Part shown: positions 5,869-27,068 of the stretch, one piece after another
Layout: each line of letters starts with the position of its first letter
How positions within the stretch are numbered: position 1 is the first letter of the stretch
From: a virus
Strand: one strand, 5' to 3'
Virus record (IMG/VR): IMGVR_UViG_3300030019_000106
Location: 1-34,416 of that record
DNA: 34,416 nucleotides
Notes under the pieces: generated by a model
What the model saw: the letters and a program-made list of their open reading frames with translations, nothing else
What the model was told of the DNA's origin: nothing
Database searches by the model: none
Translations under genes and position numbers: made by a program

Positions 5869-5908
5869 GATTAATAATTAAAAATATTAAGTGAAAGAAG
5901 GAAGAAGC

Positions 5909-7018
5909 ATGGGAAGAAAAAAGACGACCAAAGAGTTTGTCGAAGAAATGAAAGTTATCAATTCAAACATTGAAATAATCGGAGAATACAAGGGGAATAA
6001 GAAACATATAACATGCAGATGTAAAATTGACGGTTGTTTCTGGGATGCTAAACCCAACAATCTCGTTTGTGGTAGTGGCTGTCCTAAATGTGGTAAAAAA
6101 TATCGCAGAAATCATGAAGAGTTTGTTCAAGAAATAAAAATAATAAATCCTAATATTGAAGTAATAGGCAACTATGTAAATGTTTGTACTAAAATAGAAT
6201 TTAAATGTAAAATAGATGGACATGTTTGGGTTGCAAAGCCAGATAATATTCTGAAAGGGTCAGGATGTCCAAAATGTAGTGGGCTTATGCGAAAAACAAC
6301 AGAGCAGTTTAAAAAAGAGGTGTACTCAAAGGTACAAAACGAGTATACAGTATTGGGTAATTATGTTAATTCTATGACAAAAATATTATTTCAACATAAT
6401 CACTTAAAATGCAAAAATTATAAATTTAAAATGTCTCCGAATGATTTTTTAAATAATGGAACAAGGTGTCCGAGATGCTCAGGAAGATATAGAACGCCTG
6501 AAGAATTCGAAACCCAAATTTTTGAATTAGTAGGCGAAGAATATAGTGTTTTAGAAGAATATAAAAAAGCCAGTTCAAAAATTCTGATGCGACATAATGC
6601 ATGTGGGCATGAGTGGAGAGTATCGATTGGCAATTTTCTACAAGGTAGTAGATGTCCAAATTGCAATAAGTCAAAAGGCGAAAGAAAAATTGAAGAATAT
6701 TTGAAAAACAACGACATTAATTATGTGTCTCAAAAGGAATTTGACGGGTTGGTTGGACAAAACAAAGGGAATCTTTCCTATGATTTTTATTTGCCAAACT
6801 ATAATCTACTCATAGAATATCAAGGTGAACAACATGAAAAACCAGTAGATTTCTGTAGCGAGGGTGTGGATATAGCCGAAAAAAGATTTAAAAAGCAGCA
6901 GGAGCATGATAAACGAAAAAGAAATTTTGCCAAAGAAAGCAATATTAAATTATTAGAGATTTGGTACTCTGATCTTGCAAACACAGGATTAATATTAGAA
7001 AGCCAATTAATTAATTAA
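5909..7018 (+). CDS. Free-standing homing endonuclease: four zinc-finger repeats plus PD-(D/E)XK-type nuclease
   Basis: Four tandem repeats of about 62 residues occupy residues 6-255. Each ends in a treble-clef-like CPxC knuckle (CPKC at 58 and 120, CPRC at 187, CPNC at 249) and has an upstream Cys/His pair such as CRCKIDG or HNACGHEW. The C-terminal domain (256-369) has the order expected of a Vsr/PD-(D/E)XK nuclease: GERKIEEYL, YDFYLP (Asp292), LIEYQGEQH (Glu303) and a Lys-rich helix. Such proteins cut intron-less or gene-less alleles and spread by homing; the zinc repeats probably read the DNA site. I chose ATG 5909 with AAGGA upstream over the in-frame GTG at 5891, which precedes that site. 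It sits alone between the portal and protease genes, inside a conserved head block, as free-standing homing genes often do. Its target is unknown. Confidence 0.85.
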   Translation: MGRKKTTKEFVEEMKVINSNIEIIGEYKGNKKHITCRCKIDGCFWDAKPNNLVCGSGCPKCGKKYRRNHEEFVQEIKIINPNIEVIGNYVNVCTKIEFKCKIDGHVWVAKPDNILKGSGCPKCSGLMRKTTEQFKKEVYSKVQNEYTVLGNYVNSMTKILFQHNHLKCKNYKFKMSPNDFLNNGTRCPRCSGRYRTPEEFETQIFELVGEEYSVLEEYKKASSKILMRHNACGHEWRVSIGNFLQGSRCPNCNKSKGERKIEEYLKNNDINYVSQKEFDGLVGQNKGNLSYDFYLPNYNLLIEYQGEQHEKPVDFCSEGVDIAEKRFKKQQEHDKRKRNFAKESNIKLLEIWYSDLANTGLILESQLIN

Positions 7019-13619: not shown

Positions 13620-13766
13620 ATGAGTACACCTAATAGATGGGCTGTCCGATCAGTTGCGAGGGCTTCATTTTATTCCCTAGTAGACGGAAAAATGCTCACA
13701 TACCTAGACACACTAAAATCTTCAGGAATGGATGTCAAGAGTACGACCACTTATGCTCGTGGAGGT
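13620..13766 (+). CDS. Major tail protein, exon 1 of 3
   Basis: Encodes the first 49 residues (starts MSTPNRWAVRSVARASF, ends TTYARGG) of the tail tube subunit. A GGAGG ribosome binding site precedes ATG 13620. Unspliced, translation would stop one codon later (AAC TAA), giving a 50-residue stub. The exon ends in GGAGGT, which pairs with GCCTCC at 13782-13787 to form a six-pair P1 with the U-G pair at the splice site. Joined to exons 2 and 3 it gives a 268-residue protein with the phage major tail protein pattern: an N-terminal arm, the KLIGFSSDKETKITLQDAL strand region and the DPAVLDIPIEVL C-terminal strand. These subunits stack as hexamers around the tape measure. Confidence 0.85.
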
Positions 13767-14179
13767 AACTAATTACCAATCGCCTCCCATATTCGTAAAG
13801 AGTATGGAACAATGTAAATTGGTTTAATGCTAATTACATTTAAAACCCATTGAACTGCTGGAAACTCCTAAAGCCTATTAAACTAAAACGTAAGAATGAA
13901 ATAAGTCTAAACGTGAAAGTTACGAAAGTAGAAAAAATTAATAGGATAGTGCAAGGTTAAATCCTAAACACTTATATATAATGGACAATCAGCAACTAAG
14001 CCTTTAATAGAGGAAAGTTCAACGACTATTCCGTAACGGGAAGTACCTGCAAGTGCGGGGAAGTGGTGGGGTGCTTAGAAATAAGTGCGTGATATAGTCT
14101 AGCCTCATATGAGAGTATGAGAAGTTCATAGGACGATAAGCCTTGAGAACTGCATATAAATAACGAATATATGTGAATG
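13767..14179 (+). ncRNA. Group I intron, no ORF, in major tail protein gene
   Basis: A 413-nt self-splicing intron. P1 pairs exon GGAGGT (13761-13766) with GCCTCC (13782-13787). P7 pairs GACTA (14024-14028, in GTTCAACGACTA) with TAGTC (14095-14099, in GATATAGTC), matching the conserved R and S elements of group I introns. A hairpin (CATATA / TATATG) precedes the 3' end, which closes GAATG with the terminal G at 14179. P10 is weak (2 pairs), so the 3' site is less certain than the 5' one; it is the only G that keeps the frame and avoids the TGA at 14174. No protein-coding frame lies inside. Confidence 0.88.
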
Positions 14180-14737: not shown

Positions 14738-15015
14738 AGATCGCTGTCGTCTATAACAGAAATGTAATAGATTATTATTCCTGAAGAAAACGGGAAGGCT
14801 AAGTTGTTTAAAGACAATACGCTAATCCGAGTGGAAGGCTAATGGTAACGCATTGGTCACACGCAACGCATAGAAGGTGAAACTACATTTGTAGAATATA
14901 ATCCTTCCAAGAGTCAGGGACACCTAAACGTAAAGACGTAGGTGAAAAGGTATGCTGAACTTATAGGAAACTATAAGAACTAGAGGATAAAAAGCCTTTA
15001 GGATAACAGGGATTG
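14738..15015 (+). ncRNA. Second group I intron in major tail protein gene
   Basis: A 278-nt ORF-less intron. The 5' exon ends in T (14737) and the intron in G (15015). P10 is strong: exon 3 GGTGATC (15016-15022) pairs over 7 positions with GATCGCT (14739-14745). P1 is short (TGAT with GTCG at 14746-14749). P7 is likely AGTCA (14912-14916) with TGAACT (14956-14961, one bulged A), and P8 is the hairpin CACCTA / TAGGTG (14921-14944). An alternative P1 (ATAGAT with GTCTAT, 5' site after 14741) has more pairs but no in-frame 3' partner. Removal joins ...FKPD to GDPAVLDIP, restoring the protein. Confidence 0.8.
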
Positions 15016-15117
15016 GGTGATCCCGCAGTATTGGATATTCCGATTGAGGTGCTTAAAGACCCTTCAAGTTCAAGTTTATGGGAGATGACTATATATTCGG
15101 AAGACGAAATAGTATAA
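15016..15117 (+). CDS. Major tail protein, exon 3 of 3
   Basis: Encodes the last 33 residues, GDPAVLDIPIEVL to SEDEIV, ending at TAA 15115-15117. It has no start codon or ribosome binding site of its own and is too short to be noticed as a gene. The DPAVLDIP(I)EVL strand is the typical C-terminal part of siphovirus major tail proteins, which is why I looked for an intron between exon 2 and this piece. Confidence 0.82.
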   Translation, partial: GDPAVLDIPIEVLKDPSSSSLWEMTIYSEDEIV

Positions 15118-19930: not shown

Positions 19931-21498
19931 ATGGCAAGTAATCCTTTACAAGCACTTAAAATTAATCATAATTTTGCAGACGTAAAAGGCGACTTTGATA
20001 GATTAATTGAACATATAAATAGCGTTGCTAAAAATCCGATCAATTTAAATTTGAATTTAACACAGATAAAAACTCAAATGAACGAATTAACCAGTCAAGC
20101 AGCAAAGTTAAGCCAAACCATGAATTCATCTATGGGGAGTTTCGGTGGGAGTAAAACCACTCAGGAATTAGCCAAAATAGAAGGCGAACTCCAAAAGATT
20201 CGTTCTGAATATGATCAAATAGGGAAATATAAGATAGTTCCTCAGTCGTTTGATAAAAATGGAGAATTAAAAAGTTTTATAGTTCAGCTTGAACAAGCCG
20301 AAGGGTTAATGCAGAAAATAAGATACAACAGCATAAGCAAAGATGTAGGTGGAGTAGCAACGCCTTCGGGAGCTTTCAATGTAACAGGGATAACCCAAAC
20401 GGACAATACTGCTGCGGTTGCTGAGAAACAAAGAGTAGCTAACGAAAAAGTAATCACAGACAAAATGAAATTAGAACAACAGGCGGCTGAAACCCAGAAG
20501 AAATATTTAGCAGAAGAATTAGCTGCTGTTGAAGACACAGACGCAAAAGTAGTAGCCTCCAAACAAAAAGCAGTTGCCGAAGAAATGAAGTTAGATGAGG
20601 CTCAAGCCAAAGCTGTAAATAAAGCACTTGATGAAGAGTATGCTCGTAAACAAAAAATGGCTCAACAGACAAGCCTATTAGGTACAAAAGTGGATGACTC
20701 CAAAACGGGGGCATTAAACTACGATGCTTCTACTGCAAGTATAGAAAAATATTTAAAAGCAAACATGGGTTTAAAAGCTTCAATGACAAGCATAAGCGAC
20801 GTTACAGATTCTTACGGAAACAAAATGAAAAAGATAAATTACACAATGGATGAAGGCGGGGGATTTGTCCATAAGTATCAAATGACAATGGATGAAGCTA
20901 CTAAGAGTTCATATAATTTATCAAAAGGCATAGAGAATGTAGGATTGAAAGAGGGTAACTTTACCGCACGTATCAAAAATGCTATTGTTGCGGTTGCTTC
21001 GTTTGCTACTGTAACAACTGCTTTATATGCGGCTGTTCACCAAGTACAAGAGGGCATTTCCCTTGTAAATAACATGAATAAAGCACAGACAAATATTGGA
21101 ATGATCACAGGTATGACATCATCCGAAACTCAACAGTTGACTAAAGATTATTCTGCTTTGGCAGGACAATTACACGAAACAACAGACTCAATTATGACAG
21201 CAAGTGAGGAGTTTTTGAGAGCAGGTAATAGCATAGAAGATACAGCAACATTGCTAAAATCTTCAACAATTATGTCAAAGATCGCAGGACAGACACAAGC
21301 AGAAGCATCACAATCTTTGATAGCTGTACAGAACGCATATGGAATGAATGCAGGAGAAATGATGAATGTCGTTGATAAACTTGTTGCTGTCGATAATATG
21401 AGTGCGACTTCTACTGCTGAATTATCAGGTGCATTAAATAAAAGTGCGTCGTCAGCTCAAACGGCAGGAGTATCATTTGACCAACTGGTATCGTGGAT
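19931..21498 (+). CDS. Tape measure protein, exon 1 of 4
   Basis: The tape measure fills the tail tube and sets its length. The four exons (1568, 122, 158 and 3402 nt) join in frame to 1749 residues. Exon 1 codes for residues 1-522 plus two bases: an N-terminal segment (HNFADVKGDFDRLIEHINSV), a long Ala/Lys/Gln coiled coil (about residues 155-240) and a hydrophobic stretch (AIVAVASFATVTTALYAAV). The start of the conserved TP901-type core follows (IMTASEEFLRAGNSIEDTA). The exon ends ..QLVSW-AT at 21498. Unspliced, the frame runs NTPVPLFSNK to a stop at 21530, which mimics a truncated gene. ATG 19931 follows AAAGGAG by 10 nt. A tail of roughly 0.26 micrometre would be expected if the usual 0.15 nm per residue holds. 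Confidence 0.9.
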
Positions 21499-21804
21499 TA
21501 ATACACCAGTCCCTCTATTTAGTAATAAATAGATGATAAGTTGGCTTCTATCGGGAAAACACCAAAGACAGGTCAATTCCGAGGATAAGATTAGCATATG
21601 TTTTATGCTAAAATCCGTAACGACTCAGCATCATAATGGTAACATTATGGTCACGCCAACCTTCCATAAATATGGAAGATGATAGAGTCTACTCTGCACT
21701 AATAGTCTATTTTAAAAAGGTGCAGAATTAGGAAGAAATTCCTAATCGCCATAAGATATTTGTGGTCAGTAGGTAATTGAAAAATTATTGAAAGTAATAG
21801 AATG
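21499..21804 (+). ncRNA. Group I intron A in tape measure gene, no ORF
   Basis: A 306-nt intron. P1: exon GGAT (21495-21498) pairs with GTCC (21509-21512). P10: exon 2 TGGT pairs with ACCA directly 5' of that GTCC. P7: GACTC (21622-21626, in CCGTAACGACTC) with GAGTC (21685-21689, in GATAGAGTC). It ends GAATG with the terminal G at 21804. Splicing joins SW-I-GTVSSVTRQSA in frame, and both guide pairings agree with this. Confidence 0.92.
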
Positions 21805-21926
21805 TGGTACAGTTAGTTCGGTTACAAGACAAAGTGCATCAACAATAGGTGCAGGATTTAATAGTATATTTGCAAGGTTTCAATCAGTAAAAGAAGGAAA
21901 AGAGTTCGATCCCGACAACCAACCCT
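21805..21926 (+). CDS. Tape measure protein, exon 2 of 4
   Basis: A 122-nt exon. It completes the split Ile codon, then reads GTVSSVTRQSASTIGAGF, NSIFARFQSVKEGKE and FDPDNQP, and leaves one base (T) for the next codon. This is the conserved central core of TP901-family tape measures. It has no start or ribosome binding site and cannot be an independent gene. Confidence 0.9.
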
Positions 21927-22210
21927 TAAATGTGAGGGGCATAGTAGCATAATAAATAAACTACTATGAAAATTTTCTCTTATATACGACGAAGTGCCAG
22001 TGATGGTTAACGTCTTGGAAGATATAAAAACATTTATATCGCCAACAACGACTTATCGAGAAAAGCCTATTCCAAAGATAGGCATGTAAAAGTCTGAACT
22101 CACGCAATAATCTAATAATGAAACGTGAGAGGAATGGTCGGTATGAAATAATTACCTAAAGAAGAACCATTCCCGCCTATATATCTATAGGTCATAAAAG
22201 TAACAGAATG
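21927..22210 (+). ncRNA. Group I intron B in tape measure gene, no ORF
   Basis: A 284-nt intron. P1: exon CCCT (21923-21926) pairs with GGGG (21936-21939); a site one base later (CCCTT with GAGGG) has 5 pairs but no in-frame 3' partner. P7: GACT (22050-22053, in CCAACAACGACT) with AGTC (22091-22094). The 3' end is AAAGTAACAGAATG, with G at 22210, almost the same as in introns A and C. The join gives NQP-L-NNVEKALNRVG. P10 is weak, so an alternative phase-0 pair (after AAT 21931, before AAT 22213), adding one Asn, cannot be excluded. Confidence 0.87.
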
Positions 22211-22368
22211 TGAATAATGTCGAGAAAGCACTAAATAGAGTCGGTATTGCAATGAGGTCGGACAAAGATACATTTAAAGACTTCAATAGTATATTAAATG
22301 AGGTATCAGGAAATTGGGGTAAATATACCGACGTTGAAAAAGCAGAAGTAGCAACCGCAATCGCAGGT
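22211..22368 (+). CDS. Tape measure protein, exon 3 of 4
   Basis: A 158-nt exon coding NNVEKALNRVGIAMRSDKD, TFKDFNSILNEVSGNWGKYT and DVEKAEVATAIAG, the most conserved stretch of the TP901-type core. It ends at GGT (22368), where the joined frame has phase 0. Reading on unspliced would give KMCA and a stop. Confidence 0.92.
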
Positions 22369-23666
22369 AAAATGTGTGCCTGAGTATACAGTAATGTATA
22401 TATAGAAGTGAGCTATATCGGTGGAACTCCTAATAGGTAATGCTAAGGACAATACCGAGGGAAGGCTATTTAATTAAGATAAAACCTTTAATTAAGGAGA
22501 TGTATAATAAATTAATAAAAGGTGGAGTAAAGAACAAATTCAAATATTACAAGATAAATATAGCAATGAATCATGGGATAATTTAACAACAATATTACAT
22601 CCATTCACGAAACAAGAGATTCAACACAAGGCATATAAATTGAAAATAAAAAGAGATGCCTTTTATTGGACTAACGAACAAATGGAATATTTGCAAGAAA
22701 ATTTTTATAAAAAATCTAACAAAGAATTAACCAAAATACTCGATAAAACAACAAGTGCAATTGAAACAAAAGCCTATAAAATGGGGCTAATAATATCCAA
22801 TAAATGGACAGATGAAGAATTAAAATATTTAGTAGCAAATTATTCTTCTGTCGATAATAAAGATATTATTAAATTCATAGATAGGAATATTGATTGCATA
22901 ATAATGAAGGCAATGGAATTAGGGTTGAAAAAAGAAGTTTTTAATAAAAAATATAATCCTGATGAATTTCTGAACAATTTAAGCAACTATGCTAAAAAAT
23001 TAGGCAGAACACCATTGGTAACAGAAGTTTTTGAACAAGAATGGGCGTTACCAAATGCATCATTAAATAGATATTTTGGTGGATACAGAAAAGTGTGCCA
23101 AATGTTAGATTTAGATATAAATGCAAATATATTCGGTTCTAAATTTCCGATATATAAATCAAATAATGGAGATTTGTGCTGGTCAAAAGCAGAGCTTTAT
23201 ATTACAAACTTTTTTATCGATAATTCGATAGAATATAAAAGAGAAGTTTATTATAGAGATTACGCTGAAGATGGCAGATTTAATAACAAAACAAGTGATT
23301 GGATAATAAATAACAATACTTTTGTTGAATATTTCGGCATGATGGATAAAGATTATTATTATAAAAAAGCTATAAATAAAATGGATTTATGTAGTGAGAA
23401 TGATTTAAAATTAATTTCTCTTACTCAAAAACATTTAACTAAACTCAATAAAATATTTGAAGGTTTTATATCTTAATTAAATTGAACCCGTAACGACTAT
23501 ACGCTTGCCTCCTATAGTATTAAGAATATAGGATGAAAATATAGTCTGGACTATACAGTAATGTATAGAGAGAAACTCAAGTGTAAAGACACTTTAAAGA
23601 AGCAGTTTCTCCACTATTCTAAGTAGAATAGTCAGTAGCCTTGATAGGGTGAAAGTAACAGAAACG
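22369..23666 (+). ncRNA. Group I intron C in tape measure gene, carrying a homing endonuclease gene
   Basis: A 1298-nt intron with the best-supported ends of the five. P1: exon CAGGT (22364-22368) pairs with GCCTG. P10: exon 4 ACATAT pairs over six positions with ATGTGT just 5' of it. P7: GACTA (23495-23499, in CCCGTAACGACTA) with TAGTC (23542-23546, in ATATAGTC). The endonuclease gene sits in a loop closed by a perfect 13-bp stem, TTTAATTAAGATA (22469-22481) / TATCTTAATTAAA (23469-23481), just before P7, which suggests the P6 loop. It ends AAAGTAACAGAAACG (G at 23666). The join is AIAG-TYQRNKFLALM. The 16-mer TATACAGTAATGTATA occurs near both ends. Confidence 0.94.
22511..23476 (+). CDS. Intron-encoded homing endonuclease, three SANT/Myb-like repeats plus nuclease domain
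   Basis: The reading frame opens after TAA (22508-22510). Three related DNA-binding repeats follow: RWSKEQIQILQDKYS..., FYWTNEQMEYLQENFY... and KWTDEELKYLVANYS..., each of 45-50 residues ending in a KAYKLxI-type helix. Then comes a linker and a PD-(D/E)XK-like nuclease domain (CWSKAELYITNFF, TSDWIINNNTFVEYFGMMDK). The only usual start codon early in the frame, TTG 22640, would delete the first repeat, has no ribosome binding site and lies inside homologous sequence. The first codon, ATT 22511, follows AAGGAG (22494-22499) by 11 nt, so an ATT start giving 321 residues is the simplest reading. It probably cuts intron-less tape measure alleles at the exon 3/4 junction. Its stop codon lies in the stem that closes the loop. 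Confidence 0.82.
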   Translation: MNKRWSKEQIQILQDKYSNESWDNLTTILHPFTKQEIQHKAYKLKIKRDAFYWTNEQMEYLQENFYKKSNKELTKILDKTTSAIETKAYKMGLIISNKWTDEELKYLVANYSSVDNKDIIKFIDRNIDCIIMKAMELGLKKEVFNKKYNPDEFLNNLSNYAKKLGRTPLVTEVFEQEWALPNASLNRYFGGYRKVCQMLDLDINANIFGSKFPIYKSNNGDLCWSKAELYITNFFIDNSIEYKREVYYRDYAEDGRFNNKTSDWIINNNTFVEYFGMMDKDYYYKKAINKMDLCSENDLKLISLTQKHLTKLNKIFEGFIS

Positions 23667-26600
23667 ACATATCAGCGTAACAAGTTCCTCGCCCTCATGG
23701 ATAACATGAATATGGCTCTGAAACTACAAACCGCAGAAACAGACAGTGCAGGAAACGCTATGGACAGATATGGAACTTATGCTAAAAGTACAGAAGCTAA
23801 AATGAACGACTTAAAAAATGCTACACAGCAGTTTTGGATAAACGCAGTAAATAGTGACGTAATTAACAACTTCATTTCAGGCGTTACTAATATCGTTAAT
23901 AATTTACAAGCACTGCAAGCAATGCCTATTCAAGTTAGTGGAGCGATAGGCATTTTAACGGCAGCCTTGATAGCTCTTACCGTTGCAACATTCCACTTCA
24001 AAGCAGACGTAATGAGTGCTGCTTTAATGAAAATATTAACAAGTGCAGGAGAAACCGCCGTAATTTTAAGAGGAATGTCAGTGGCAGAAGGTTTGGCTAC
24101 CGTTGCAACTGAAGGGTTAACTGTAGCGGCAAGAGGTTTAACTACCGCCGCCGTTGCTTTATTTTCGCCTATAAACATACTTATTGGTGTTTTAGCCTTA
24201 GTAACAGCAGGTGCAATGGGATATGTTCAGCATATGACCGACCTTAAAGAACAGACAGATAAAAACAAAGCATCTATTGAAGCTTTGACTAAAGCTATGA
24301 AAGAAAATAATGCTGAAGCTATGAAATCTGGTTCAACAGACTTAGAAGGGCAACAAAGTAATTACCGAGAATTATTAAAACAAAAACAGGTGGCAGAAGC
24401 AAACTTAAAGAAGGTAAGTAATACTACAACAGGCAATGCTTTCACAGATCAAAATGCACTTTCAAAAGCACAAATAGAACTTGAAAGAGTTAACTCATTA
24501 TTATCAGATCAGAAGCAAGTTTTAAAAGATGCAGGAGCTGGATTCAATGAGTTAACAGGCGAGATATATAAAGTTACAGCAGCACAAGCAAGGCTCACAG
24601 ACCAAAAGATTATAACGGGTATTAAAAACACCACAAAAGCCGAGATTGACAACAAAGATGGAATCATAAAATTGTATGCCGAGTATAAAAGACTTATCAG
24701 TTCACATCAAGACGCTTCAATTCAAGCTCAAGACTTAGCAAATAGAATAGCAGGAGTAACTACTGCTACAGATGAAAATGGTAATACTGTTGTAGTAAAT
24801 ACTGGATTAATTGATAAAGAAATTCAAATGTTTGGTCAAGAAGGGCTTACTGTAACAGATTTAGCAAATGCGAAAATGGAAGCCGCCAAAAGTGCCATGT
24901 CATGGAACATAAACGAAACTCAGGTTACTTATGAGCAAATTAAGCAGAGAATTAAATATTATGGAGATGAGATCAATGCTTTAAATGCACTCATGGCAAA
25001 ACAATCTCAACAATATACCGACGCACAGATTAAGGGCGGTATAGCACCAGACGGAACAACACTTATGACACCTGCCGAAGCTTCACAAAGAAAAGCAGGA
25101 AACGATGTAACTCAAGGGATTTATCAATCTGCACAAAACTCTATTGATGCTATATATAACAGTTTGAGCGCACCGTCAAGTTCTACGCCAACAGACGGAT
25201 ACCCCCCATCAGGTACTTCCGCAGACAAAGCAGCCGCAGCAAAAAAAGCAGCCGACGATGCAGCCGCACAAGCAAAGAAAAACTCCCAAGCTTTGATAGA
25301 CCAGTGGCAAGAAGCATCCGATGCAGTTGTATCAGGATATGAAAAACAAATTGATGCTATAAATGCCAAAGCAGACGCAGAAAAAAGGGCAACTCAAGAA
25401 TTAGAATATCAGAATAAATTAATCAAAATCCAAAACGAGTTGAAAAATACACAGAACGAAAAGAATGTTCGATTGTATAGCAATGGTGGTTGGACTTGGG
25501 TTGCAGATCAGCAACAAATTACAAAACTAAAAGATGATTTGGCAACTGCAAAGACTGATTATTCTTCATGGCAAGCTGACAATGCTAAAACTGACCAAAT
25601 CGCAAGTATCCAATCGTCTATAGATGCTGAAAAAGCACGAGTTTCTGCACAGGTGTCTGCCGAACAAAAGAAAATAAATGGTTATGCGAGCGGTACAGAT
25701 TATGTCCCAAAAACCGACGAGTATCTTGTAGGTGAAAATGGTCCAGAAAAAGTAATATTGGCTCAAGGTTCAAAGGTAATCCCAAATAACAAACTGAGCG
25801 AAGCTCCTACACAAAACGTAACTTCTGCAACAGGTAAATTGCTTGGTGATGTAGATCAGAGTGTCAAAAAATTTGTAGACAGCGCAAAGAATTATTCAAA
25901 GGACTTAGACAAAAACATGGGAGATTCTTTGACAGTAAATGATAAATTACTTAAAGAACCATTAGATAATCTAATATCCGATGTTAGTGGCAATATACAA
26001 ACATTTGTCGATGATTCCCCCACTTACGGAAAGGACATGAATGACAACATAGGTAAAGCAATAACATCAAATGACCCATTAGTAATAAATCCTATGAATG
26101 CGGTGATAACAAAACTTCAAACTGGTATAACGGATTTTGTAAAAACAATGTATCCTTCAGGAACAAGTACCGTAAGTGAATTAGGTAACGGAATAACAAA
26201 CTCTACAGATGCAATAGCTACTGTAGTTGACACTTTAACAGCTAAGATAATAACTCAATTTAAAACAGGCTTTGGAATTGCATCTCCTTCTACTGTAATG
26301 TATGAGATCGGTGACTTCATGATGCAAGGTCTGATTAATGGTATGACGGATAGCGATGTTACTACTGTAATCAATCAAAAGGTATCGAGTTCAATTACGG
26401 CGGCACAAGCAGCAATGGGAAGTGCAGGAGCTACAGGAGACGTTACAAGTTGGCTAACACAAGCTATTCAGGCAACAGGAATAGGCATGGAAAATCTAGC
26501 AGCCTTGCAAACTATAGCTATGAAAGAGAGTGGTGGCAATCCTAATTCTATTAACTTAACTGACAGCAATGCAATAGCAGGTCATCCAAGTCAAGGACTT

Positions 26601-27068
26601 ATGCAAACAATTCCTTCTACCTTTAACGCTTATAAACTCGCAGGTCACGACAATATACTGAATCCTGTAGATAATGCAATAGCAGCGATTCGGTATATTT
26701 TGGCAAGATATGGAAGTGTAAATAATGTCCCAGGAATTGTATCTATGAGAAACGGTGGAGCTTACAAGGGATACGCAAAGGGGACAGATTATGTTCCAAG
26801 GACAGGAGAATATCTTGTAGGTGAAGAAGGCGTAGAGAAAGTAATCTTACCTGAAGGTGCAAAGGTTATTCCAAATAATAAATTGCTTTCAGGTGATTTG
26901 TCCAACAGCTTTAGAATGCCTAACTTAGACACTTTAAAAAGTGCAGCAAGTGCAGCATCTCAGAAGATAAGCAACTACAATTTTACATTCGATAAAGTTG
27001 TAGCTGAAAATGTAGATAGTTTTGTTAGACAAGCTAAAACATTTACCGCAGTTCGTAATCAATATTAA
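23667..27068 (+). CDS. Tape measure protein, exon 4 of 4, with transglycosylase domain
   Basis: Codes for residues 617-1749. It begins TYQRNKFLALMDNMNMAL, the end of the conserved core. Hydrophobic segments follow (AIGILTAALIALTVATF and SPINILIGVLALVTAGAMGYV), typical of tape measures that insert in the host membrane. Next are an Ala/Lys coiled coil (about 1110-1150), a Trp-containing repeat region, and a lytic transglycosylase-like domain near 1550-1640: MKESGGNP with candidate catalytic Glu1570, SQGLMQTIPSTF and DNAIAAIRYILARYG. That domain would open peptidoglycan during DNA entry. Two copies of a 39-residue GTDYVP module flank it. The GTG at 23649 that could be taken as a start lies inside intron C. 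Confidence 0.92.
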   Translation, partial: TYQRNKFLALMDNMNMALKLQTAETDSAGNAMDRYGTYAKSTEAKMNDLKNATQQFWINAVNSDVINNFISGVTNIVNNLQALQAMPIQVSGAIGILTAALIALTVATFHFKADVMSAALMKILTSAGETAVILRGMSVAEGLATVATEGLTVAARGLTTAAVALFSPINILIGVLALVTAGAMGYVQHMTDLKEQTDKNKASIEALTKAMKENNAEAMKSGSTDLEGQQSNYRELLKQKQVAEANLKKVSNTTTGNAFTDQNALSKAQIELERVNSLLSDQKQVLKDAGAGFNELTGEIYKVTAAQARLTDQKIITGIKNTTKAEIDNKDGIIKLYAEYKRLISSHQDASIQAQDLANRIAGVTTATDENGNTVVVNTGLIDKEIQMFGQEGLTVTDLANAKMEAAKSAMSWNINETQVTYEQIKQRIKYYGDEINALNALMAKQSQQYTDAQIKGGIAPDGTTLMTPAEASQRKAGNDVTQGIYQSAQNSIDAIYNSLSAPSSSTPTDGYPPSGTSADKAAAAKKAADDAAAQAKKNSQALIDQWQEASDAVVSGYEKQIDAINAKADAEKRATQELEYQNKLIKIQNELKNTQNEKNVRLYSNGGWTWVADQQQITKLKDDLATAKTDYSSWQADNAKTDQIASIQSSIDAEKARVSAQVSAEQKKINGYASGTDYVPKTDEYLVGENGPEKVILAQGSKVIPNNKLSEAPTQNVTSATGKLLGDVDQSVKKFVDSAKNYSKDLDKNMGDSLTVNDKLLKEPLDNLISDVSGNIQTFVDDSPTYGKDMNDNIGKAITSNDPLVINPMNAVITKLQTGITDFVKTMYPSGTSTVSELGNGITNSTDAIATVVDTLTAKIITQFKTGFGIASPSTVMYEIGDFMMQGLINGMTDSDVTTVINQKVSSSITAAQAAMGSAGATGDVTSWLTQAIQATGIGMENLAALQTIAMKESGGNPNSINLTDSNAIAGHPSQGLMQTIPSTFNAYKLAGHDNILNPVDNAIAAIRYILARYGSVNNVPGIVSMRNGGAYKGYAKGTDYVPRTGEYLVGEEGVEKVILPEGAKVIPNNKLLSGDLSNSFRMPNLDTLKSAASAASQKISNYNFTFDKVVAENVDSFVRQAKTFTAVRNQY
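25680..25796 (+). repeat. GTDYVP module, copy 1, in tape measure
   Basis: Codes GYASGTDYVPKTDEYLVGEN ... KVIPNNKL (39 residues). It is about 75% identical by eye to copy 2 at 26769 and matches a module common in tape measure proteins of Gram-positive phages. Confidence 0.85.
26769..26885 (+). repeat. GTDYVP module, copy 2, in tape measure
   Basis: Codes GYAKGTDYVPRTGEYLVGEE ... KVIPNNKL (39 residues). It lies 1.09 kb after copy 1, directly downstream of the transglycosylase domain. Confidence 0.85.

What the first reader, a model, noticed from the sequence alone, without database searches (positions are those of the whole stretch)
19931..27068. Tape measure gene split by three group I introns within 0.9 kb of coding-free spacing
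Two apparent gene fragments (stop at 21530, restart at 23649) become one intact 1749-residue tape measure when three introns are removed. Exons 2 and 3 are only 122 and 158 nt. Each junction has a U at the 5' site, a terminal G, P1 pairing and a P7 core; introns A and C also have convincing P10. All three sit in the conserved TP901 core, as expected for elements that home into conserved sites. Automated annotation would call this gene broken or duplicated and miss both small exons.
Basis: partly seen in the sequence, partly recalled or inferred. Interest (0 to 1): 0.85.

Follow-up and report, generated by a model that had tools for sequence, protein, structure and literature searches.

The report
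Phage tape-measure gene with three introns
The gene for this phage's tail-length ruler protein is cut into four pieces by three self-splicing RNA introns; this is almost certainly real, but the same layout is already proven in the cholera phage ICP1, so it is a new example of a known thing in a gene that turns out to be a favourite intron target.

Summary
The observation and its interpretation both hold. Removing 21499-21804 (A), 21927-22210 (B) and 22369-23666 (C) leaves one 1749-residue TP901-type tape measure. Its match to TIGR01760 rises from 48 bits for the unspliced fragment (profile 10-161) to 119 bits over 21-349, and intron-free relatives align straight through. Each insert has the group I set P1 (U.G), P2-P9 and a terminal G. 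Rfam's intron model finds A (23 bits) and C (29-34 bits) only weakly and misses B. B is nevertheless the best-supported one: its helices covary strongly (24 of 35 pairs with two-sided changes), and a homologous intron sits at the same site in viral contig L064 while the nearly identical L099 has exactly the empty site. ICP1's tape measure already has four exons and three introns, proven by RNA-seq and RT-PCR, so this is a new member of a known kind. Environmental relatives show the tape-measure core interrupted at many positions, one with five inferred introns and a 10-nt exon. Splicing was not observed here; RT-PCR would settle it.

The parts
19931..21498 (+). Exon 1 of the tape-measure gene (1568 nt)
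   Evidence: ORF; junction; PF10145 and TIGR01760 partial matches
21499..21804 (+). Group I intron A, 306 nt; P1 GGAU/GUCC with U.G, P2, P3 GUUGGC/GCCAAC, P4, P6, P6a, P7 GACUC/GAGUC, P7.1, P8, P9-P9.2; P10 UGGU/ACCA; no ORF
   Evidence: RF00028 23.3 bits, E 5.6e-4; 0/700 shuffles
21805..21926 (+). Exon 2, 122 nt
   Evidence: aligned to intron-less relatives
21927..22210 (+). Group I intron B, 284 nt; P1 CCCU/GGGG with U.G, P2, P3 UUUUCUC/GAGAAAA, P4-P6a, P7 GACUU/AAGUC, P8, P9, P9.1, P9.2; no ORF
   Evidence: covariation; same-site homologue and empty site; 1/700 shuffles; not found by Rfam
22211..22368 (+). Exon 3, 158 nt
22369..23666 (+). Group I intron C, 1298 nt; P1 CAGGU/GCCUG with U.G, P3, P4, P6, 12-bp P6a whose loop holds the ORF, P7 GACUAUA/UAUAGUC, P8, P9-P9.2; P10 ACAUAU/AUGUGU
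   Evidence: RF00028 34.2 bits and 29.2 bits, E 6.7e-6; DNA relatives in phage introns
22640..23476 (+). Homing-endonuclease-like ORF in the P6a loop of intron C (278 aa from a TTG). The same frame is open from 22511 without a common start codon; the nearest ATG with a GGAG-type site (22500) is in another frame, so the N-terminus may be frameshifted.
23667..27068 (+). Exon 4 (3402 nt incl. stop) with a transglycosylase SLT domain near its end

Best explanation
A single late tail gene is transcribed whole. Three group I ribozymes (A, B, C) fold in the pre-mRNA, each binding the end of its upstream exon through P1. Guanosine attacks the 5' splice site, and the freed exon 3'-OH attacks after the terminal G, joining exons of 1568, 122, 158 and 3402 nt into one 1749-aa tape-measure mRNA. 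The three introns came in separately as mobile elements whose insertion in conserved coding sequence is neutral because they splice out. C still carries a homing-endonuclease-like gene in its P6a loop; A and B have none. Shown here: the anatomy, the intact spliced frame, the RNA core and its covariation for B, and the natural empty site for B in relatives. Inferred: that splicing occurs in this phage, that it is self-catalysed, and that the elements arrived by homing.
For: Intact spliced frame. TIGR01760 rises from 48.3 bits, profile 10-161 to 119.4 bits, 21-349 in one stretch; PF10145 from 52.3 to 99.6 bits, 4-201. 82 known phage records cover at least 80% of the spliced core in one place, and the 10-row alignment has no gap at junctions 1 and 3. 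Full helix sets. RF00028: A 23.3 bits, C 34.2/29.2 bits, in the range of the matches that the same model gives in phages with experimentally proven introns (ICP1 tape-measure region 77.9/38.9/28.9/17.5, T4 105/40/36, Twort 64-101, SPO1 25.6). B: 96.6% of cells paired, 24 of 35 pairs with two-sided changes, 0/500 shuffles; homologous 288-nt intron at the same site in L064 and the exact empty site in L099, 95-99% identical around it. Shuffles 0/700, 1/700, 3/700.
Against: No RNA data. RF00028 scores for A and C are below the gathering cut-off of 50 and B is not matched. The protein segment at junction 2 is a variable loop, so the exact base at B rests on the U/G rule, P1 and the L064/L099 pair, whose phase differs by 1 nt. 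The C shuffle test is weak (3/700), and its best descriptor used a different P3 from the one I drew.
Confidence: 0.95

Rival explanations
1. The tape-measure gene is broken: the inserts are decayed remnants and the phage (or a defective prophage) makes two truncated proteins.
For: Both ORFs have possible starts; the endonuclease ORF may be frameshifted at its start.
Against: All three cores keep intact helices from P1 to P9.2, exons 2 and 3 keep the frame and family residues, and intron B's helices are maintained by compensatory change in relatives. Decayed introns would lose these.
Confidence: 0.03
2. Some inserts are not RNA introns but inteins, translational bypass elements or assembly joins.
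For: Phage structural genes can carry inteins; the record is a metagenomic contig.
Against: Each insert interrupts the reading frame with stops, unlike an intein; ribozyme cores and the U/G splice rule fit all three. Homologous inserts of the B family occur in many contigs and at the same site in L064, so they are not a one-off assembly fault.
Confidence: 0.01
3. The introns are real but used for regulated or alternative splicing (exon skipping as in Twort orf142), making variant tape measures.
For: Short exons between strong introns; exon skipping is on record for Twort orf142 (cited in PMC11878797).
Against: 122, 158 and their sum 280 are not multiples of three, so skipping either or both small exons shifts the frame.
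Confidence: 0.06

Closest known systems
Vibrio phage ICP1 tape-measure gene (PMC10448857)
   Same: Tape-measure gene with four exons and three introns, an endonuclease ORF in an intron, proven by RNA-seq and RT-PCR. The paper calls the tape measure a frequently interrupted gene. RF00028 finds group I introns there, and intron D of this window is 79% identical over 66 nt to part of one of them.
   Different: ICP1's tape measure is not matched by the TP901-core HMM, so insertion sites are not comparable. Its HNH endonuclease sits in the middle intron (introns 1 and 3 in isolate M4); here the ORF is in the third and its nuclease type is undetermined.
Staphylococcus phage Twort orf142, tail tube gene (cited in PMC11878797, PMC5526547)
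   Same: Tail gene with three closely spaced group I introns (three adjacent RF00028 matches of 64-101 bits in Twort).
   Different: Different gene; the exon skipping reported there would break the frame here.
Tape measure of gut phage MT835481.1 (L015) and of environmental contigs L064, L099, L138, L079, L066, L091 and others
   Same: TP901-type tape-measure cores with introns, some of the same B family; L064 shares site B.
   Different: Most sites differ; the contig behind L099 has five inferred introns including a 10-nt exon.
Bastillevirinae polymerase and terminase genes (PMC11878797)
   Same: Two or three group I introns in one gene of a phage of Gram-positive bacteria.
   Different: DNA-metabolism and packaging genes rather than a tail gene.

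Membership tests
Group I intron | Conserved catalytic core P3-P8 with the P3/P7 pseudoknot | tested here: met
   All helices present in A, B, C; shuffles; covariation of P7, P8, P9, P9.1, P9.2 for B
Group I intron | P1 with a U.G wobble at the 5' splice site and a terminal G | tested here: met
Group I intron | Match to the curated covariance model RF00028 at its gathering score (50 bits); a curation threshold rather than a defining trait | tested here: inconclusive
   Not reached: A 23.3, C 29.2-34.2, B none. Matches in SPO1, T4 and the ICP1 tape-measure region, phages with proven introns, also fall under 50 in part, so failing this cut-off does not exclude membership
Group I intron | Guanosine-initiated splicing of exons | not testable with these tools
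   needs RNA
Subgroup IA1/IA2 | Extra stem P7.1 between P7 and P3 | tested here: inconclusive
   A has P7.1; none drawn for B or C; no subgroup tree was made
TP901-type tape measure (TIGR01760) | Full-length match over the curated cut-off | tested here: met
   119.4 bits against a cut-off of 28.8, profile 21-349/349 (the typed probe has one wrong residue, N to T, at its second position)
ICP1-type multi-intron tape measure | Same gene family and same insertion sites | tested here: not met
   ICP1 loci not matched by the TP901-core HMM
Homing endonuclease of intron C: HNH_repeat (PF18780) or HNH type | Curated score reached | tested here: not met
   19.3 bits against a cut-off of 26; PHROG 1891 (HNH endonuclease) matches only the N-terminal repeats
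Homing endonuclease of intron C: EDxHD / PD-(D/E)XK type | Nuclease fold and catalytic residues | tested here: inconclusive
   C-terminal E..DW..VE(Y/F)FG pattern kept in a relative, but the model is too poor (pLDDT 40) and no solved relative was found

The most novel reading that the evidence does not exclude
The conserved TP901 core of tape-measure genes is a general hotspot for independently acquired group I introns in phages of uncultured hosts, with many insertion positions in about 250 codons, five or more introns in one gene and exons down to 10 nt, so that making the tail ruler depends on several ribozymes working in order.
Probability: 0.6. Interest if true: 0.55.

Novelty: new member of a known kind. 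Interest (0 to 1): 0.4.

Why it matters
It is a clean second lineage of three-intron tape measures after ICP1, in a different tape-measure family, and it shows how easily such genes are mis-annotated: Rfam's group I model at default settings finds none of the three introns. With its relatives it points to the tape-measure core as a recurrent landing place for introns, which makes the choice of targets by homing elements testable. It also led to near-identical intron-plus and intron-minus phage sequences (L064/L099).

Tried and rejected
Rfam cmscan on the whole window and on 2.5 kb gave no group I hit; search filters, not absence, appear to be the cause. The search for related loci with the spliced core and with the endonuclease found no viral contig, and the ten-row alignment had no stretch conserved enough to search with; patterns from the introns themselves worked. 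Recent duplication of one intron was considered and rejected: A, B and C share only 12-14 nt near the 3' end. Structure prediction of the endonuclease failed (pLDDT 40) and was not searched further. The Rfam hits to a coronavirus element and snoRNAs in this region are far below their cut-offs and were taken as chance hairpin matches.

Full report
What is there. The window is a 34.4 kb virus contig with a terminase-like gene, portal, head and tail genes and an endolysin. The tape-measure gene starts at 19931. Its first ORF stops at 21532 and a second ORF runs 23649-27068.

Protein evidence. The unspliced first fragment matches TIGR01760 (tape_meas_TP901) at 48.3 bits over profile 10-161; the spliced core scores 119.4 bits over 21-349 in one stretch. 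PF10145 goes from 52.3 bits to 99.6 bits over its whole length. In the phage collection 94 records match the spliced core and 82 cover at least 80% of it in one place. In the alignment with nine relatives (27-37% identity) junctions 1 (WI/GTVSS) and 3 (AG/TYQR) have no gap; junction 2 falls in a loop that several relatives lack, but Psychrobacillus phage Perkons and a gut phage keep it at nearly the same length.

RNA evidence. All three inserts carry P1 with a U.G pair at the splice site, P2, P3, P4, P6, P7, P8, P9, P9.1 and P9.2 as perfect or nearly perfect helices. A also has P7.1; C keeps its ORF in the loop of a 12-bp P6a. P10, read from the sequences, is 4 bp for A, 6 bp for C and poor for B. 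Rfam's group I model gives 23.3 bits for A (E 5.6e-4) and 29-34 bits for C, and nothing for B. Under the same model the matches in ICP1, T4, Twort and SPO1, phages with experimentally established introns, range from 17.5 to 105 bits, so these low scores are ordinary for phage introns. A descriptor using only pairing, no sequence motif, was reached by 0, 1 and 3 of 700 dinucleotide shuffles for A, B and C.

Intron B in relatives. A pattern from the 3' end of B was found in at least 119 viral contigs. On a 12-row alignment, P7, P8, P9, P9.1, its inner stem and P9.2 form standard pairs in 96.6% of cells, with two-sided changes in 24 of 35 pairs; none of 500 shuffles comes near and sliding the partners destroys the signal. 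Contig L064 has a 288-nt intron homologous to B at the same place in its own tape measure (splice phase shifted by 1 nt). Contig L099, 95-99% identical around it, reads straight through as GTAACGCT/AAATGATG, a natural empty site. This is the strongest single piece of evidence and needs no assumption about the window.

Independence of the introns. A, B and C share only 12-14 nt near the 3' end, so they are not recent copies of one another. B, C, D and E each have DNA relatives among the fetched phage loci, several of them in known or model-supported introns; A has none there.

The ORF in intron C. The 278-aa ORF 22640-23476 matches PHROG 22655 at its C-terminus and an HNH-endonuclease PHROG at its N-terminal repeats, and PF18780 (homing-endonuclease-associated repeat) below its cut-off. 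Its first repeat continues upstream in frame to 22511 without a common start codon, and the nearest ATG behind a GGAG (22500) is in another frame, so the gene may be frameshifted or start unusually. A 36%-identical relative lies about 4 kb upstream of the tape-measure core in the L138 contig. A model of the protein was too poor to use.

Precedent. ICP1's tape measure has four exons and three introns, shown by RNA-seq and RT-PCR, and its authors call the tape measure a frequently interrupted gene (PMC10448857). Twort's tail-tube gene has three introns and exon skipping (cited in PMC11878797). The architecture is therefore known. ICP1's tape measure is not recognised by the TP901-core HMM built here, so shared insertion sites cannot be claimed and the likeness is probably convergent. 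Exon skipping would shift the frame here, since 122, 158 and 280 are not multiples of three.

Context. An HMM of the core applied to the fetched loci shows breaks near core positions 45, 80, 92, 114, 163, 167 and 210 in different contigs, including contigs with two, three or more breaks. One contig (G001, loci L099 and L165) has five inferred introns in the core, with a 10-nt exon TGGTAATGCT between two of them; both flanking junctions obey the U/G rule, the Rfam match begins right after that exon, and the joined protein aligns to the window's without internal gaps (exon ends there were set by hand). The tape-measure core thus looks like a recurrent intron target; this is suggestive, not a controlled survey.

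Verdict. No splicing was observed, and that remains the one decisive missing fact.

Noticed in passing
13770-14179 (about): A fourth group I intron (RF00028 50.5 bits at 13783-14121) interrupts a virion structural gene that starts near 13621; P1 GGAGGU/GCCUCC. Part of it (66 nt) is 79% identical to an ICP1 tape-measure intron.
   Followed up: partly
about 14758-15018: A fifth, weaker group I intron (RF00028 14.1 bits) in the same gene. Joining its three exons lifts PHROG 2729 from 99 to 126 bits and from profile 48-219 to 4-247. Exact ends were not settled by the U/G rule.
   Followed up: partly
5891-7018: Free-standing 375-aa endonuclease-like gene (PHROG 559, 681, 9084; zinc-ribbon repeats) between the portal gene and the next head gene.
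   Followed up: no
22500-22640: The reading frame of the intron C endonuclease continues upstream of its listed TTG start but has no common start codon, and an ATG behind GGAG is in another frame: a possible one-base frameshift in an A run.
   Followed up: partly
22382-22407 and 23549-23574: The 5' and 3' parts of intron C share a 26-nt stretch (88% identical, around tatacagtaatgtata) in P2 and P9.
   Followed up: no
L165 3476-3485 (contig behind L099): A 10-nt exon between two group I introns of a tape-measure gene, with P1 helices ACACCAU/GUGGUGU and AUGCU/GGCAU on the two introns.
   Followed up: partly
L015 (MT835481.1): An unannotated human-gut phage record whose tape measure carries at least two group I introns, one a few bases from site C and with a B-like 3' end.
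   Followed up: partly
L017 (PQ006092.1, bajarodcaudo virus 1): Eight matches to the group I model in one phage genome, two of them flanking an endonuclease gene that separates two large ORFs.
   Followed up: no
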